A DNA stretch of 41,455 nucleotides. Origin: Candidatus Shapirobacteria bacterium. Lineage in GTDB: Bacteria; Patescibacteriota; Microgenomatia; UBA12405. A program made the translations under genes and the position numbers. Position 1 is the first letter of the stretch. The number at the start of each line of letters is the position of its first letter. The DNA lies in the NCBI GenBank assembly GCA_018062705.1, contig JAGORQ010000007.1:1-41455 (forward strand), given 5' to 3'. The notes beneath the pieces were generated by a model, which did no database searches, had not been told where the DNA came from, and saw only the letters and a program-made list of their open reading frames with translations. This document shows positions 26,948-33,625 of the stretch, one piece after another.

Positions 26948-27352
26948 TTATTTAAGGATGTTAATAATTAAATCTCTGCCATTTTCTGGATAAATTTTTA
27001 AATTCTTATTTAGATTATCTTTATTCACCCATTTTGGCTCGAATAATTTCTCAGGAATATTTAAATATTTTTTCTCTGGGCCAGTTACGACAAATTCTGT
27101 GTCCTTGGTGGTGCAATGAAAATAGTAGTCGTGGCGATTAGGACTATCCACTGCCTTAACAAAAGAATATGAATCTATTTTTAAACCAAGTTCTTCTTTT
27201 ATTTCTCTTAGCAGGGCTGTTTCTGGAGCTTCATCAACCTCAATGCCACCACCAGGAATAGCATAGTATTCCTCACCGTTTTTAACTCGGTGGATTAAAA
27301 CAATATCTTTTCCGTTTTGAATTATGGCCCCAACACGATGTATTTTGGACAC
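26948..27352 (-). CDS. NUDIX hydrolase
   Basis: This 134-residue protein has a complete Nudix box at residues 35-57 (GGIEVDE, REIKEELGL), the metal-binding motif for hydrolysis of nucleoside diphosphates linked to another moiety. It starts with GTG overlapping the lysS stop (TAGTG), so it is translated after lysS. Substrate unknown; possible roles are oxidised nucleotide or dinucleoside polyphosphate hydrolysis, the latter a by-product of lysyl-tRNA synthetases. Confidence 0.9.
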   Translation of the reverse strand: MSKIHRVGAIIQNGKDIVLIHRVKNGEEYYAIPGGGIEVDEAPETALLREIKEELGLKIDSYSFVKAVDSPNRHDYYFHCTTKDTEFVVTGPEKKYLNIPEKLFEPKWVNKDNLNKNLKIYPENGRDLIINILK

Positions 27353-29244
27353 TACTTTATGAAATCTTTAACAGCTTGCCCTAGGTGGGAGGAGAGAGAA
27401 TCATCTAATAAATAGATGCTGGTGTGGTCGGGGCTAAGACCGAGTTCGCGCTCAGAGCAAAGCATGCCGTGCGATTCGACACCCCGAAGTTTGGCGACTT
27501 TGATATCAACTATTTCTTTGTCTTCACCAAATACCTTGGCGCTAACTAAAGAGACTGGGACAATATCCCCAGCTTTTATATTTGAGGCACCACAAACGAT
27601 TTGCAAGGTTTCTGTCCCAACATCAATTTGGCAAACATGAAGTTTGTCGGCGTTGGGATGATTTTCTAGAGTAATAATTTTGCCGATGACAACTAATTCG
27701 TTTTCTTTACCAATTTTTTCGATAGTCTTTGTTTTATTTGGTTTGGGTAAATTGTAGATGCGGCGGGTTTCGTCGGTTATTTCAAACTTCATTTGCGGGA
27801 AAAAGGTACCTTCACGGGCGGTGACATTTTCCAAAAACCAAAATAGACGTTCACTGTGGGCATAGCCGGAAGTTGGAGGCATCCCCCACTCAAGCATTTC
27901 GACATAATCAATGTCTAACATTTGAGATTCATCGTCGCCTGCATCACGATTTTGTTGTTGTTCTTGAAATCGGGCGAGCTGGTCAACTGGGTCGTTGAGC
28001 TCGGAATAGCCATTACCCAGCTCAGATCCAGCAATAATTATGTGGAATCTTTCGGTTAATTCAGGATTGTCTTGGCGGGATTTGGCTAGTGGCGAACTAA
28101 ACTTAGGCTCATCAATGACAAACACGGGGCCGGCAATTTCTCGACGAACAATTTTCCAAAGATTGTCAACAATTCGGGCGCGATTGGTCAGACCTTCGGT
28201 ATTAATTTTTTGTTGTTTTAAAAGTTCAAGAATTTTTTCTTCGGAGTCAGTGAAGATGTCAACGGAAAATCTTTTTTTGATTAAATCTCCATAACTGATT
28301 CTGGGCCAGGGTTGGTCTAAATCGAAAGTGTGTTCTCCTCGAGTAAAGACAGATTTACCGTACAGGTTTTTGGCGATGTACTTGAACATGGATTCTACTA
28401 AGTCCATATTTTGGTGGTAGTCGGCATAGGCCCAATACCACTCACACTGATAATATTCTTGCAAATGTTCATCATCAATTCCTTCGTTGCGAAAATTTGG
28501 TCCAAGAGTAAAGATTTTTTCAAATCCGCCACCAATTAGTCGTTTTTGATAGAGTTCTGAAGAAATACGCAAATAAAAGTCTTGGTCGAGGGCATGGTGA
28601 TGGGTAACAAACGGTTTGGCGTCGGCACCGCCGGTAACTAGTTCCATAATGGGAGTTTCGACTTCGATAAAGCCATGATCGGTGAGAAACTGACGATTGA
28701 GTTGCCAAAATTTGGATTTGCGAATAAACAAGCTTTTGCGGTCGGGATTCATGACTAAGTCAAGATAACGGCGACGGAAAATGGTTTCCTGATCAGTTAG
28801 TCCTTGCCATTTTTCGGGTAAAGGCCTGATTGCCTTGGTTAACATCTTGATATCTTGGGCAAATATGGAGATTTCGCCGGTTGAAGTTTTGTCAATTTTA
28901 CCGGTGACTTGAATGAAATCGCCGATGTCAATTAATTTAAGATCTTCAAAACCAATGGTTTGGTTGTCAGCACTAGTAGGTGACAAATTTTGACGAAGGA
29001 TAAAGACTTGAATTTTGCCAGACTGGTCTTGAATGTGGGCAAAAGAAATACCGCCTTGTTTCCGAAAAGACATAACCCGACCAGACAGTGTCAATACTTT
29101 TTGTTGGTATTTATCAAAGTTGTTGACGATCTCTTGGTGGTCAGCGTCTTTTTGAGATTGGGCTGGAAAGGAGTTAATGCCTAGGGCGCTAAGCCGGGCA
29201 ATTTTTTCCAAACGGACTTTTCGAAGTTCATCTATGGTGGACAT
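27352..29244 (-). CDS. lysS: Lysyl-tRNA synthetase (class II) fused to an EMAPII-like tRNA-binding domain
   Basis: This 630-residue protein has an N-terminal OB anticodon domain (about 50-150), the class II catalytic core with motif 2 FRNEGIDDEHLQEYYQCEWY, and WGMPPTSGY leading into motif 3. Motif 3 reads YAHSERLFW instead of the usual GLGIDRL, with the arginine kept. Residues about 515-630 form an extra OB domain of the Arc1p/EMAPII/PheT type (LVVIGKI...HPNADKLHVCQIDVG, VCGASNIKAGD, HGMLCSERELGL). Ordinary bacterial LysRS ends near residue 500. The extra domain should tighten tRNA binding. The TATAAT at 29250-29255 ends five bases before the ATG. Confidence 0.93.
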   Translation of the reverse strand: MSTIDELRKVRLEKIARLSALGINSFPAQSQKDADHQEIVNNFDKYQQKVLTLSGRVMSFRKQGGISFAHIQDQSGKIQVFILRQNLSPTSADNQTIGFEDLKLIDIGDFIQVTGKIDKTSTGEISIFAQDIKMLTKAIRPLPEKWQGLTDQETIFRRRYLDLVMNPDRKSLFIRKSKFWQLNRQFLTDHGFIEVETPIMELVTGGADAKPFVTHHHALDQDFYLRISSELYQKRLIGGGFEKIFTLGPNFRNEGIDDEHLQEYYQCEWYWAYADYHQNMDLVESMFKYIAKNLYGKSVFTRGEHTFDLDQPWPRISYGDLIKKRFSVDIFTDSEEKILELLKQQKINTEGLTNRARIVDNLWKIVRREIAGPVFVIDEPKFSSPLAKSRQDNPELTERFHIIIAGSELGNGYSELNDPVDQLARFQEQQQNRDAGDDESQMLDIDYVEMLEWGMPPTSGYAHSERLFWFLENVTAREGTFFPQMKFEITDETRRIYNLPKPNKTKTIEKIGKENELVVIGKIITLENHPNADKLHVCQIDVGTETLQIVCGASNIKAGDIVPVSLVSAKVFGEDKEIVDIKVAKLRGVESHGMLCSERELGLSPDHTSIYLLDDSLSSHLGQAVKDFIK

Positions 29245-30743: not shown

Positions 30744-31003
30744 AAGTTTGGAACGCGTCGAGGAGAACATAATACACTCTCTGAGCAGTTCGACAAAATC
30801 GAACAGGGAGCTCCCTAAATAGAGCTAGAGTAACACTGCAAACCCGCCTTTGGCGAGGTAAACAAATACTCGATAATGAGGTAAATAATTATCGATCCCG
30901 CAGTGGCGGGATTTTTTTATTTACGAAACAAGGTGGTACCGTGAGAAGCCCTCACCCTTGTAAGGCCATTTTATTGGTTTTACATCGGCGAGGGCTTTTT
31001 TTT
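30744..31003 (+). promoter_or_regulatory. Tyrosine-type T-box leader
   Basis: The leader holds the diagnostic T-box AAGGTGGTACCGTGAG at 30930-30945. The antiterminator forms from ACAAGG/CCTTGT and GTGAG/CTCAC around the TGGT bulge. The competing terminator forms from AGCCCTC (30947-30953) and GAGGGCT (30990-30996) followed by eight T residues. TGGT pairs with an ACCA tRNA end, as in tRNA-Tyr. A closing helix GTTTG (30746-30750)/CAAAC (30839-30843) and the stem ACTCT/AGAGT frame a loop with UAC at 30773-30775, the likely Tyr specifier. It precedes the M20 peptidase and TyrRS genes. Confidence 0.9.
30896..30918 (+). terminator. Stem III of the T-box, resembling an intrinsic terminator
   Basis: ATCCCGC/GCGGGAT with loop AGTG is directly followed by seven T residues. 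It is in the position of T-box stem III, ahead of the antiterminator. As drawn it could also end transcription before the switch. Confidence 0.55.
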
Positions 31004-31006
31004 ATT

Positions 31007-32038
31007 ATGAAACTGAAAATAAATTCAAAATTGCTTGGCGAATTGGTCGCTGTTAAGTCATTGAGTACTGACTGCAGTGAATGTCGCAAAGCTTTAAATC
31101 TTATAAAAAAACAACTAGATGCCAAACAAATTGTGGTCAAAATTGGCGAATTTAACGGACAGCCTCATTTAATCTCTGGAGACATCAATTCCGCTGATAT
31201 TTTATTTTTGTCACATATAGATGTTGTGTCAAGCAGTGGTCAAATTTTTGAATTAAAGATTAGTGGGAACTTGTTGAAAGGTAGAGGTGTGTTTGATATG
31301 AAAGGTCCCATGTTGGCATCATTAGAAGCTTTTATTAAATTGCCCGACGAGGTAAGAAATAGAATACTGTTCGTAATAACTTCTGATGAGGAAATTGGTG
31401 GATTTCATGGCACAAGTAAATTAACTAAATTGTTTAAAAATATAAAACTGGCGATTGTGCCAGACGGTGGAAGTGGTGAAAATATAGTAGTAAATCAAAG
31501 AGCCCCACTACATGTTAAGTTAAGTCACAAAGGTGTCGCGGTGCATGCGTCACGTCCTGCCGAGGGAATCAATTCGGTGGAAACGCTGGCTAAGTGTTGT
31601 ATTGAATTGTCAAATCGTATTCCAAATTGCAGTATAACTGTTTTTAATGGTGGCGATGCAATAAACAAAGTGCCAGACTCAGCTTCGGCTACTTTGGATA
31701 TAAGAATAGAGAGTGAAAAGGACTCGACAATGATTAGACATTTACTTGCGACTATTTCAGTAAAGTACAATTGCTTGTTTGAGGAAATTGATAATCCTTT
31801 GTTTTTTGAAGCTGACCCTAACAATATTTATATTTCTAGATTTAAGGATTTAGTAGGAAGTAGTTTTGTAACTGAAGCAGGTACATCTGATGCTCGATTT
31901 TTGTGGAGCGATTTACACATTCCTATTATTGTTACCTCAGCTGACGGCGGTGGGGCACACAGTGATGCCGAGTGGGTGGACGCTGAGTCGCTAAATAAAC
32001 TGGCGACTAATATTTACAATTTCGTTATTAATTTATAA
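31007..32038 (+). CDS. M20 family metallopeptidase under T-box control
   Basis: This is a 343-residue enzyme from the ATG at 31007; a longer frame from 30941 runs through the T-box and is rejected. M20 metal ligands are present: His70 and Asp72 (LSHIDVV), Asp97 (GVFDMKG), catalytic Glu128-Glu129 (TSDEEIGG), Asp153 (VPDGGS) and the late His in GGGAHSDAEW. The family comprises carboxypeptidases, dipeptidases and deacylases such as DapE and ArgE. Control by a tyrosine T-box suggests release of tyrosine from peptides or conjugates. The ATG is three bases after the terminator U-tract, with no ribosome-binding site. Confidence 0.85.
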   Translation: MKLKINSKLLGELVAVKSLSTDCSECRKALNLIKKQLDAKQIVVKIGEFNGQPHLISGDINSADILFLSHIDVVSSSGQIFELKISGNLLKGRGVFDMKGPMLASLEAFIKLPDEVRNRILFVITSDEEIGGFHGTSKLTKLFKNIKLAIVPDGGSGENIVVNQRAPLHVKLSHKGVAVHASRPAEGINSVETLAKCCIELSNRIPNCSITVFNGGDAINKVPDSASATLDIRIESEKDSTMIRHLLATISVKYNCLFEEIDNPLFFEADPNNIYISRFKDLVGSSFVTEAGTSDARFLWSDLHIPIIVTSADGGGAHSDAEWVDAESLNKLATNIYNFVINL

Positions 32039-32053: not shown

Positions 32054-33625
32054 ATGCAAATAATGAATTTTGAAGTAGTCTCAAAAATTTTAGAAGATAA
32101 AGGAATTGATTTTGAGGTGATAACCTTTACTGACGAGGTGATTGCAGCTCGGGAAGTGGATACTTCGGCGGATCACAACTATGATCCGAAGAACGCAATT
32201 AAAACGCTAGTGATTAGAACCAAAGATGGATTTAAAGCTGTCGTTTTAAAAGGGTCGGAAAAAATTGATGGAGAGTTATTGGAAACAATAGTTGGTAAGT
32301 GGAGTGTGATTGATGAGAAGACATTGCTTGAGGAGTTTGGTTTTGTGCCAGGTACGGTGTGCCCATTGGCCTTGGAGATTCCTATATTGATTGATAAAAG
32401 TGTATTGCAGTTGGAAACATGGAGTATGGGGACTGGAGATATTTTTAAGGGATTTAATATTAATAAAGCAGAGGTGGCGCAAAAATTGAAATTCAGCGAT
32501 GTAGAGATCGCACTGAAGTATAAAGTATTTAGTCAAGAGGTTGAAGACAAATTTCACTTGATAACCCGCAATTGTCAGGAGGTGCTGACGGAGGAGGACT
32601 TGAAAGAGTTGTTGGCTTCAGGAAAACAGATTAATCATTATATTGGATTTGAGATTTCCGGATTGGTACATTTGGGAACGGGCCTGATGTCGATGGGGAA
32701 AATTGCTGATTTTATTAAGGCGGAGGTAAAGTGCAAAATATTTTTGGCTGATTTTCATTCGTTTTTGAATAATAAATTGGGTGGTAACTGGGAAAATATT
32801 CGCTGGGCGAGTCAAAACTATTTTAAGCAGGCTTTGATTGCTTCTTTAAAAGTGTTTGGGGTAGAGGAAAATCAAGTTGAATTCGTGAGTGGCAAAGAAC
32901 TGTATGAAACTCACCCGGAGCATTGGCAAAATTTCATGGAGATTGGTAAACAGGTGACACTGTCGAGGAACTTAAGAAGTATTTCGATAATGGGCAAAAA
33001 AGAAGGGACGGACGTGGATATGGCGACTTTGTTCTATCCGCCTTTGCAGGTGGCCGATATTGTAACCATGGATATTAATTTGGCTCATGCGGGAATGGAC
33101 CAAAGAAAAGCACATGTGATAGCTCGAGATGCGATTAAAAAAATTCCAGGTAATCATCCAACACCCATTGCCATTCACCAAAACCTAATTGCTGGGCTAA
33201 CTGCACCCGAGTCTGGTGCCAATGATGAGGAGTCGTTGAAAATGAGTAAGTCAAAACCAGGAAGTGCAATTTTTGTGCATGATACACCAGAGGAAATTAG
33301 AGAGAAACTTAAAAAAGCCTATGGTCCGCCAAAGGAAGTTGACTTTAATCCCCTACTGAACTGGGTAAAGACTTTGGTTTTCTGGGGTGAAGAAGATGGT
33401 GAGTTCACAATTGAACGACCAGAAAAATTTGGTGGAAATAAAGTTTACTTAAAATATACTGATGTGGTGGCAGATTATGCGAGTGGTGAATTATTCCCAC
33501 TAGATCTAAAAAATTCGCTAGCGGAATGGTTGATTAAAAAACTGGAGCCAGTCCGAGCACATTTTGAAATGCCAGAACACAAAGAGGCGTTGGAGAAGAT
33601 GAAGGGATTGTTGGCTAAGAAATAG
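32054..33625 (+). CDS. tyrS: Archaeal-type tyrosyl-tRNA synthetase fused to a YbaK-like domain
   Basis: This is a 523-residue fusion. Residues about 4-155 form a YbaK/aminoacyl-tRNA deacylase domain (KTLVIRTKDGFKAVVLKG with Lys50, GFVPGTVCPLAL). Residues about 165-523 are a class I TyrRS of the archaeal/eukaryal kind: HYIGFEISGLVHLGTG at 195-210 (HIGH region, usually HLGH), LADFHSFLNN, AGMDQRKAH at 346-354, and KMSKSKPG at 396-403. No bacterial S4-like C-terminal domain is present. The Tyr-type T-box upstream supports tyrosine specificity. Its end overlaps uvrC tail-to-tail by 11 bases. Confidence 0.92.
   Translation: MQIMNFEVVSKILEDKGIDFEVITFTDEVIAAREVDTSADHNYDPKNAIKTLVIRTKDGFKAVVLKGSEKIDGELLETIVGKWSVIDEKTLLEEFGFVPGTVCPLALEIPILIDKSVLQLETWSMGTGDIFKGFNINKAEVAQKLKFSDVEIALKYKVFSQEVEDKFHLITRNCQEVLTEEDLKELLASGKQINHYIGFEISGLVHLGTGLMSMGKIADFIKAEVKCKIFLADFHSFLNNKLGGNWENIRWASQNYFKQALIASLKVFGVEENQVEFVSGKELYETHPEHWQNFMEIGKQVTLSRNLRSISIMGKKEGTDVDMATLFYPPLQVADIVTMDINLAHAGMDQRKAHVIARDAIKKIPGNHPTPIAIHQNLIAGLTAPESGANDEESLKMSKSKPGSAIFVHDTPEEIREKLKKAYGPPKEVDFNPLLNWVKTLVFWGEEDGEFTIERPEKFGGNKVYLKYTDVVADYASGELFPLDLKNSLAEWLIKKLEPVRAHFEMPEHKEALEKMKGLLAKK

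What the first reader, a model, noticed from the sequence alone, without database searches (positions are those of the whole stretch)
32054..33625. Archaeal-type TyrRS with a fused YbaK-like editing domain
The synthetase half follows archaeal TyrRS motifs throughout, and a YbaK-type deacylase domain is fused at its N-terminus. Editing domains of this type are known in ProRS or as free proteins; I know of no TyrRS fusion. Archaeal TyrRS normally reads C1-G72 in tRNA-Tyr while bacterial tRNA-Tyr has G1-C72, so the tRNA must match. The fusion may remove mischarged amino acids.
Basis: partly seen in the sequence, partly recalled or inferred. Interest (0 to 1): 0.75.

Follow-up and report, generated by a model that had tools for sequence, protein, structure and literature searches.

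The report
Tyrosyl-tRNA synthetase with added proofreading domain
A tiny uncultured bacterium's only enzyme for loading tyrosine onto its tRNA is an archaeal-type enzyme fused to a proofreading-type domain otherwise tied to proline tRNA, and related domains turn up beside or fused to this enzyme in several distant lineages, suggesting that this enzyme, long thought to need no such proofreader, can acquire one.

Summary
Confirmed. ORF 32054-33625 (523 aa, one frame) is an INS/YbaK-family editing domain (aa 1-145) joined to a complete archaeal-type TyrRS (aa 162-523). It is the genome's only TyrRS, and the single tRNA-Tyr is archaeal-type (C1-G72, A73, short variable loop). The archaeal TyrRS/tRNA-Tyr pair in such CPR bacteria was already published (Mukai 2017); the YbaK fusion was not in any paper I could search. 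It recurs at 73% identity in Ca. Shapirobacteria, so it is no assembly error. The same YbaK clade (100/99) lies in an overlapping operon with archaeal tyrS in a distant lineage, and fused (with a B3/4 domain) to a bacterial-type TyrRS in another. These domains keep the INS lysine and GXXXP; YbaK domains fused to TrpRS in the same group have lost the lysine (7 of 7). In this genome C1-G72/A73 occurs only in tRNA-Pro and tRNA-Tyr, the pair that the homologue ProXp-ala reads. A tyrosine-specifier T-box leader precedes the operon (peptidase, then fusion). Best reading: a T-box-controlled, cis-editing TyrRS; deacylation of tRNA-Tyr and the amino acid removed are inferred. New variant of a known kind.

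The parts
30749..30962 (+). T-box leader (short stem I) upstream of the operon
   Evidence: RF00230 47.2 bits, E 6.5e-9, model 1-219; below Rfam's gathering score of 93, but relatives in the same setting score 98 and 108 and G024/G017 have the same short form.
30773..30775 (+). putative specifier codon TAC (Tyr)
   Evidence: Read by eye from sequence GAACATAATACACTCTCTGAGC; the same place reads UAC in G017, G024, G138 and G628. Inference from alignment.
30932..30943 (+). T-box antiterminator core GGTGGTACCGTG (UGGU would pair with ACCA of an A73 tRNA)
   Evidence: Only match in the window with up to 1 mismatch; 0.07 expected.
30943..31003 (+). intrinsic terminator of the T-box (GC-rich hairpin plus T run)
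   Evidence: Fold of 30925-31003: -35.6 kcal/mol, z -5.7.
31007..32038 (+). M20 (ArgE/DapE-like) peptidase, first gene of the operon; ATG after the terminator (the listed ORF starts at GTG 30941 inside the leader)
   Evidence: PF01546, PF07687; a homologue lies upstream of TyrRS, after a T-box, in G017, G011 and G015 (44-45% identity).
32054..33625 (+). YbaK-TyrRS fusion, 523 aa
32054..32488 (+). N-terminal INS/YbaK editing domain (aa 1-145)
   Evidence: PF04073; clade with other TyrRS-linked domains 100/99
32201..32203 (+). codon of Lys50 = conserved INS active-site lysine (Lys45 of C. crescentus ProXp-ala)
   Evidence: alignment column; role from PMC10164551
32351..32365 (+). GXXXP motif (GTVCP, aa 100-104)
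32489..32536 (+). linker (aa 146-161), alignable with that of the Shapirobacteria fusion
32537..33622 (+). archaeal-type TyrRS (aa 162-523); HLGTG at aa 206-210, KMSKS at aa 396-400

Best explanation
The gene makes the cell's only tyrosyl-tRNA synthetase. Its C-terminal archaeal-type part charges an archaeal-type tRNA-Tyr (C1-G72, A73). Its N-terminal INS/YbaK domain most likely acts in cis as a post-transfer proofreader that hydrolyses wrongly charged tRNA-Tyr, with the synthetase supplying tRNA selection and perhaps also the C1-G72/A73 end, which in this genome only tRNA-Pro and tRNA-Tyr carry. A tyrosine-specifier T-box would raise expression of a peptidase (to free amino acids) and of this synthetase when uncharged tRNA-Tyr accumulates, the condition in which mischarging is most likely. 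Shown by sequence: domain content, sole TyrRS, tRNA identity, retained Lys and GXXXP, repeated link of this YbaK clade with TyrRS, T-box leader. Inferred: deacylase activity on tRNA-Tyr, the amino acid removed, and regulation.
For: Domains and sole TyrRS. tRNA-Tyr C1-G72/A73; of 47 tRNA genes only 4 tRNA-Pro and tRNA-Tyr have C1-G72. The same YbaK clade (100/99) is fused to archaeal TyrRS (G000, G024), in a 4-base-overlapping operon with archaeal tyrS (G628), fused to a bacterial-type TyrRS (G722), and free in G140. A second, different YbaK gene sits 3 bp upstream of archaeal tyrS in G138. All keep the INS lysine and GXXXP, unlike the seven TrpRS-fused domains, which lost the lysine. Purifying selection. 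All five genomes of the clade have a C1-G72 tRNA-Tyr, including G722 whose TyrRS is bacterial-type. Homologues ProXp-ala and ProRS INS are aminoacyl-tRNA deacylases; ProXp-ala reads C1:G72 and A73, YbaK gains specificity by binding a synthetase, and the Lys is needed in all members tested (PMC10164551, PMC3973320, PMC11295145). Tyr T-box in all four archaeal tyrS loci with linked YbaK.
Against: Most relatives with archaeal TyrRS and C1-G72 tRNA-Tyr do without the domain, so it is not essential to that system. Known INS domains remove small amino acids, and TyrRS is not known to mischarge those. Basic residues that ProXp-ala uses on C1:G72 are not clearly all present (its Lys50 is R/T/K/V here). 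No structural model: both AlphaFold jobs failed (pLDDT 38 and 36). T-box association is 4/4 against 4/20 (Fisher p 0.007), with no correction for kinship. No biochemistry.
Confidence: 0.6

Rival explanations
1. Identity collision: by adopting C1-G72/A73, tRNA-Tyr came to look like tRNA-Pro at its acceptor end, so ProRS or another enzyme occasionally mischarges it with Pro, Ala or Cys; a tRNA-Pro-type INS domain was tethered to TyrRS to clear exactly these. (A specific version of the best explanation.)
For: C1-G72/A73 is confined to tRNA-Pro and tRNA-Tyr in this genome; ProXp-ala reads exactly these bases; all five clade genomes have C1-G72 tRNA-Tyr, even with bacterial-type TyrRS.
Against: ProRS also needs anticodon G35/G36 (PMC3973320), which tRNA-Tyr lacks; most C1-G72 genomes lack the domain.
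Confidence: 0.25
2. The domain removes a tyrosine-like error made by TyrRS itself (D-Tyr, m-Tyr, DOPA, Phe), replacing D-Tyr-tRNA deacylase (DTD) or adding to it.
For: TyrRS charges D-Tyr (general knowledge); DTD (PF02580) is absent from G000, G024 and G628. In G722 the same YbaK is joined to a B3/4 domain, the type that removes Tyr from tRNA-Phe in PheRS (role from general knowledge).
Against: DTD is also absent from all 14 other genomes of the family tested, which have no TyrRS fusion, and present in G722, G140 and G138, so there is no correlation. INS pockets known so far take small side chains.
Confidence: 0.25
3. The domain is an appended tRNA-binding or stabilising module without catalysis, like the B2/OB domains fused to CPR TyrRS and LysRS.
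For: B2-TyrRS and B2-LysRS fusions are known in CPR (PMC5370408); the TrpRS-fused YbaK domains lost the catalytic lysine and are nevertheless kept, so a non-catalytic use of the fold seems possible.
Against: The TyrRS-linked clade keeps the lysine and GXXXP in 5 of 5 and includes a stand-alone protein (G140) that has no synthetase attached.
Confidence: 0.2
4. The domain edits tRNA-Pro (Ala- or Cys-tRNA-Pro) in trans, and its tether to TyrRS is incidental.
For: It belongs to the INS family; the genome's ProRS shows no INS domain (only three PF04073 hits in the genome).
Against: The genome has another free INS protein (C37, 135 aa) related to the structure 2cx5; repeated independent linkage to TyrRS is not explained.
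Confidence: 0.08
5. Assembly chimera or chance read-through of two genes.
For: None found.
Against: Same architecture and alignable junction at 73% identity in an independent genome; purifying selection on the N-domain.
Confidence: 0.01

Closest known systems
Archaeal-type TyrRS with C1-G72 tRNA-Tyr in CPR bacteria (Mukai et al. 2017, PMC5370408)
   Same: Archaeal-type TyrRS, C1-G72 tRNA-Tyr, Microgenomates-type bacteria; the paper also reports N-terminal domain fusion and swapping in TyrRS.
   Different: Their fused domain is the B2 OB fold of PheRS beta, not an editing domain; no YbaK fusion and no T-box are mentioned in the parts I read.
ProXp-ala fused to the N-terminus of ProRS in protists
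   Same: INS-family domain at the N-terminus of an aminoacyl-tRNA synthetase of archaeal/eukaryotic type.
   Different: Class II ProRS and tRNA-Pro, not class I TyrRS and tRNA-Tyr (PMC11295145).
INS domain of bacterial ProRS; [quoted passage not shown]
   Same: Same family by sequence (PF04073), conserved lysine, GXXXP.
   Different: Forms its own clade linked to TyrRS; sister (91/85) to a free CPR family, outside the rows with E. coli YbaK, YeaK and ProRS INS.
T-box leaders
   Same: Stem I, specifier UAC, T-box core GGTGGTACC, terminator.
   Different: Short stem I in this family; found in CPR genomes, sometimes followed directly by a tRNA-Tyr gene.

Membership tests
Archaeal/eukaryotic-type TyrRS | Full-length match to the archaeal TyrRS model above its cut-off; no bacterial S4 C-terminal domain | tested here: met
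   PRK08560 378 bits vs 220; TIGR00234 85 bits vs 113.8; no S4 match
Archaeal/eukaryotic-type TyrRS | Class I signature motifs (HIGH-like, KMSKS) | tested here: met
   HLGTG aa 206-210 and KMSKS aa 396-400, aligned with 2cyc
Archaeal/eukaryotic-type TyrRS | Partner tRNA-Tyr with C1-G72 | tested here: met
   CCATCGG...CCGATGG-A-CCA on contig C39
INS/YbaK superfamily | Homology to PF04073 / known INS structures | tested here: met
   PF04073 E 9.6e-14; profile vs PDB 1wdv 8e-13, 1dbu 4.9e-10, 2dxa 5.1e-10
INS/YbaK superfamily | Conserved active-site lysine (Lys45 of ProXp-ala) | tested here: met
   Lys50 here; lost in all seven TrpRS-fused domains
INS/YbaK superfamily | Fold | tested here: inconclusive
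   AlphaFold pLDDT 38 and 36, 4 sequences only
INS/YbaK superfamily | Aminoacyl-tRNA deacylase activity | not testable with these tools
   needs biochemistry
YbaK proper (Cys-tRNA-Pro deacylase) | Curated TIGR00011 model above cut-off | tested here: not met
   40 bits vs 153; tree places it apart from E. coli YbaK
ProXp-ala | Lys50 and Arg80 contacts to C1:G72 | tested here: inconclusive
   Position +5 after the lysine is R/T/K/K/V in the clade; Arg80 position not aligned with confidence
T-box leader | Rfam RF00230 match, T-box core, terminator, specifier | tested here: met
   E 6.5e-9 but 47.2 bits, under the gathering score 93 because stem I is short; core, terminator and UAC present

The most novel reading that the evidence does not exclude
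A family of INS-type domains specialised for tRNA-Tyr gives TyrRS a post-transfer editing site, recruited because C1-G72/A73 makes tRNA-Tyr resemble tRNA-Pro, and shuffled among archaeal-type and bacterial-type TyrRSs as operon partner, fusion or free protein; in some genomes it belongs to a T-box-controlled second tRNA-Tyr/TyrRS pair beside a bacterial pair.
Probability: 0.4. Interest if true: 0.78.

Novelty: new variant of a known kind. Interest (0 to 1): 0.63.

Why it matters
As far as I know TyrRS has no known cis-editing domain; D-Tyr is handled in trans by DTD. A 2024 review states that INS-superfamily members other than the ProRS INS domain are single-domain proteins, apart from ProXp-ala fused to ProRS (PMC11295145). 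A TyrRS with such a domain, repeatedly linked in distant lineages, would show that proofreading can be acquired by a synthetase thought not to need it, and that a change in tRNA identity (C1-G72) may open or require that route. It makes a concrete test possible: does tRNA-Pro-like acceptor identity on tRNA-Tyr create errors that need editing? It also suggests tyrosine T-boxes in CPR bacteria, and a natural genome with two TyrRS/tRNA-Tyr identity pairs (G628), of interest for orthogonal translation.

Tried and rejected
Loss of DTD as the reason for the fusion: absent from the whole family tested, fused or not, and present in G722. Homology among the unknown ORFs near tRNA-Tyr, YbaK, TyrRS or TrpRS (G024 418 aa, G138 297 aa, G013 333 aa, G025 460 aa) and ORF1 of the TrpRS-A operon: none. 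Viral contigs: no relatives. Second bacterial tyrS in this genome: none. Assembly chimera: rejected by G024. I first took the ~600-aa INS-bearing frames of the family as ProRS; the one read in full (G015) is an AspRS.

Full report
OBSERVATION. The ORF 32054-33625 (+) is one uninterrupted frame of 523 aa. It contains a tRNA_edit domain (PF04073, aa 40-129, E 9.6e-14) and a tRNA-synt_1b domain (PF00579, aa 191-497, E 4.4e-37). The synthetase half exceeds the cut-off of the archaeal TyrRS model PRK08560 (378 vs 220 bits) and not that of the bacterial model; its best solved relative is the TyrRS 2cyc. The window domain alone is too divergent to find a PDB chain, but a profile of its clade plus two relatives finds 1wdv, H. 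influenzae YbaK 1dbu and E. coli YbaK 2dxa with E 8e-13 to 5e-10. Between aa 140 and 165 there is no methionine, so the TyrRS half is not started separately at the junction.

GENOME. The window is a whole contig of a 1.07-Mb genome, 95% complete. PF00579 occurs three times: this gene, a bacterial TrpRS and an archaeal-type TrpRS. There is no other tyrS. PF04073 occurs three times: this gene, the N-terminus of that bacterial TrpRS, and a free 135-aa protein. The single tRNA-Tyr found (C39) is CCATCGG...CCGATGG-A-CCA: C1-G72, A73, short variable loop. Of 47 tRNA genes, C1-G72 is found only in four tRNA-Pro genes and in tRNA-Tyr, all with A73.

WHAT IS ALREADY KNOWN. Mukai et al. 2017 (PMC5370408) reported archaeal-type TyrRS and C1-G72 tRNA-Tyr in CPR bacteria, B2-domain fusions of TyrRS and LysRS, and the tRNA-Trp(A73)-ORF1-TrpRS-A operon followed by a bacterial TrpRS, which is what contig C8 of this genome holds. 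No YbaK fusion is mentioned in the parts read. Literature searches for YbaK with TyrRS, TrpRS or CPR found no such fusion; the library holds open-licence papers only.

DISTRIBUTION. In the 35 genomes of the family, archaeal-type TyrRS is the rule but only this genome and G024 carry the fusion; none of the other class genomes searched (374 in all) has it as one frame. G024 is JACPHO010000001.1, Ca. Shapirobacteria. A scan of 84,980 species genomes with the N-domain alignment gave only three loci: that one; a free 157-aa protein in Ca. Roizmanbacteria (G140); and an 832-aa protein of another Patescibacterium (G722) that reads B3/4 (PF03483) - YbaK - bacterial-type TyrRS with the SYY C-terminal domain. 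This scan uses short exact patterns and misses distant relatives. In 380 genomes across the phylum the profile found one more close member, G628, where the YbaK gene overlaps archaeal tyrS by 4 bases. In G138 a different YbaK gene lies 3 bp upstream of archaeal tyrS.

TREES. The five TyrRS-linked or related domains (G000, G024, G722, G140, G628) form one clade (100/99); the G138 domain does not belong to it. In the TyrRS tree the two archaeal-type fusions fall in separate supported groups (100/99 and 95/92; p-AU 0.045 against holding them together), although their YbaK domains are sisters with an alignable linker. This points to transfer or recombination of the fused domain, or to an old fusion with many losses. 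dN is 0.27 against dS 2.2 for the YbaK part.

ACTIVE SITE. [quoted passage not shown] In seven TrpRS-fused YbaK domains (G000, G013, G023, G025, G138, G296, G722) it is Ala, Ser or Gly. So the TyrRS-linked domain looks catalytically competent and the TrpRS-fused ones do not, at least by the known mechanism.

tRNA LINK. All five clade genomes have a C1-G72 tRNA-Tyr, including G722 with its bacterial-type TyrRS. G628 has two TyrRSs and two tRNA-Tyrs: a C1-G72 tRNA next to the archaeal operon (tRNA - aminotransferase - YbaK - tyrS) and a G1-C72 tRNA elsewhere, with a bacterial TyrRS. Which enzyme charges which tRNA is inferred from identity rules. ProXp-ala reads C1:G72 and A73 of tRNA-Pro, which offers a reason why an INS domain could be recruited to such a tRNA-Tyr. 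This remains an idea: many C1-G72 genomes lack the domain.

OPERON. Upstream of the fusion lies an M20 peptidase (31007-32038; 15-nt gap) and before it a T-box leader (30749-30962, E 6.5e-9), with core GGTGGTACCGTG, a strong terminator, and UAC at the specifier place. The score is under Rfam's gathering threshold because stem I is short; G024 and G017 share this form and G138 and G628 have full-length versions above the threshold, all reading UAC. In G017 the order is T-box - tRNA-Tyr - M20 - unfused TyrRS, so the window operon equals this one with the tRNA lost and YbaK gained. A T-box core lies within about 5 kb upstream in 4 of 4 YbaK-linked archaeal tyrS loci and in 4 of 20 unlinked family loci (Fisher p 0.007, not corrected for kinship, small numbers).

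MECHANISM. Most likely the fusion charges tRNA-Tyr and clears misacylated tRNA-Tyr in cis. The amino acid removed is open: small amino acids put on by a ProRS-like error, or tyrosine analogues. DTD distribution gives no support for a D-Tyr role. No structure could be predicted.

VERDICT.

Noticed in passing
L004:4206-5660 (-); also L122:4474-5955, L123:345-1835, L124:2873-4342, L115:1884-3383 (-), L152:103-1605 (-): Bacterial-type TrpRS with an N-terminal YbaK domain in six genomes (a seventh, G722, is listed below); in all seven the INS lysine is replaced by Ala/Ser/Gly, so the domain may have a non-catalytic or changed role.
   Followed up: partly
L131:179-2677 and L142:274-2517 (G722): One genome in which both TyrRS (bacterial-type) and TrpRS carry B3/4 plus YbaK at the N-terminus; B3/4 next to or fused with TyrRS without YbaK is indicated in relatives G735, G750, G763, G774 (frames of 650-670 aa).
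   Followed up: partly
L101:85-1887 (G015): AspRS-like synthetase with a C-terminal YeaK-like INS domain; frames of about 600 aa with the same domain type in G003, G004, G008, G016, G023 are probably the same. Identity read from sequence.
   Followed up: partly
L137:2802-8170 (G628): T-box, tRNA-Tyr (C1-G72), aminotransferase, YbaK, archaeal tyrS in a genome that also has a bacterial TyrRS and a G1-C72 tRNA-Tyr: two tyrosine identity pairs in one cell.
   Followed up: partly
L130:4312-4640 (G024): T-box followed by a second tRNA-Tyr with A1-U72 ahead of an unknown 418-aa ORF and the YbaK-TyrRS fusion; the other tRNA-Tyr of the genome is C1-G72.
   Followed up: partly
L048:147-2604 (G017): T-box, tRNA-Tyr, M20 peptidase, unfused archaeal tyrS: tRNA gene inside a T-box-led operon of a CPR bacterium.
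   Followed up: yes
L004:4206-7880: tRNA-Trp (A73), ORF1, TrpRS-A, bacterial TrpRS: the operon described by Mukai 2017, here with the YbaK-fused TrpRS.
   Followed up: yes
window 27352-29244 (-): LysRS with a C-terminal tRNA_bind (B2-like) domain, as already reported for Microgenomates.
   Followed up: no
L115:3371-4474 (-) (G296): DIT1/PvcA-like protein (isonitrile synthase family, PF05141) overlapping the start of a YbaK-TrpRS gene; the same genome has two tandem bacterial TyrRSs (L148).
   Followed up: no
L112:3062-3955 (-), L041:3074-4330 (-): Unknown ORFs (297 and 418 aa, no Pfam match, unrelated to each other) between tRNA-Tyr and YbaK or YbaK-TyrRS.
   Followed up: partly
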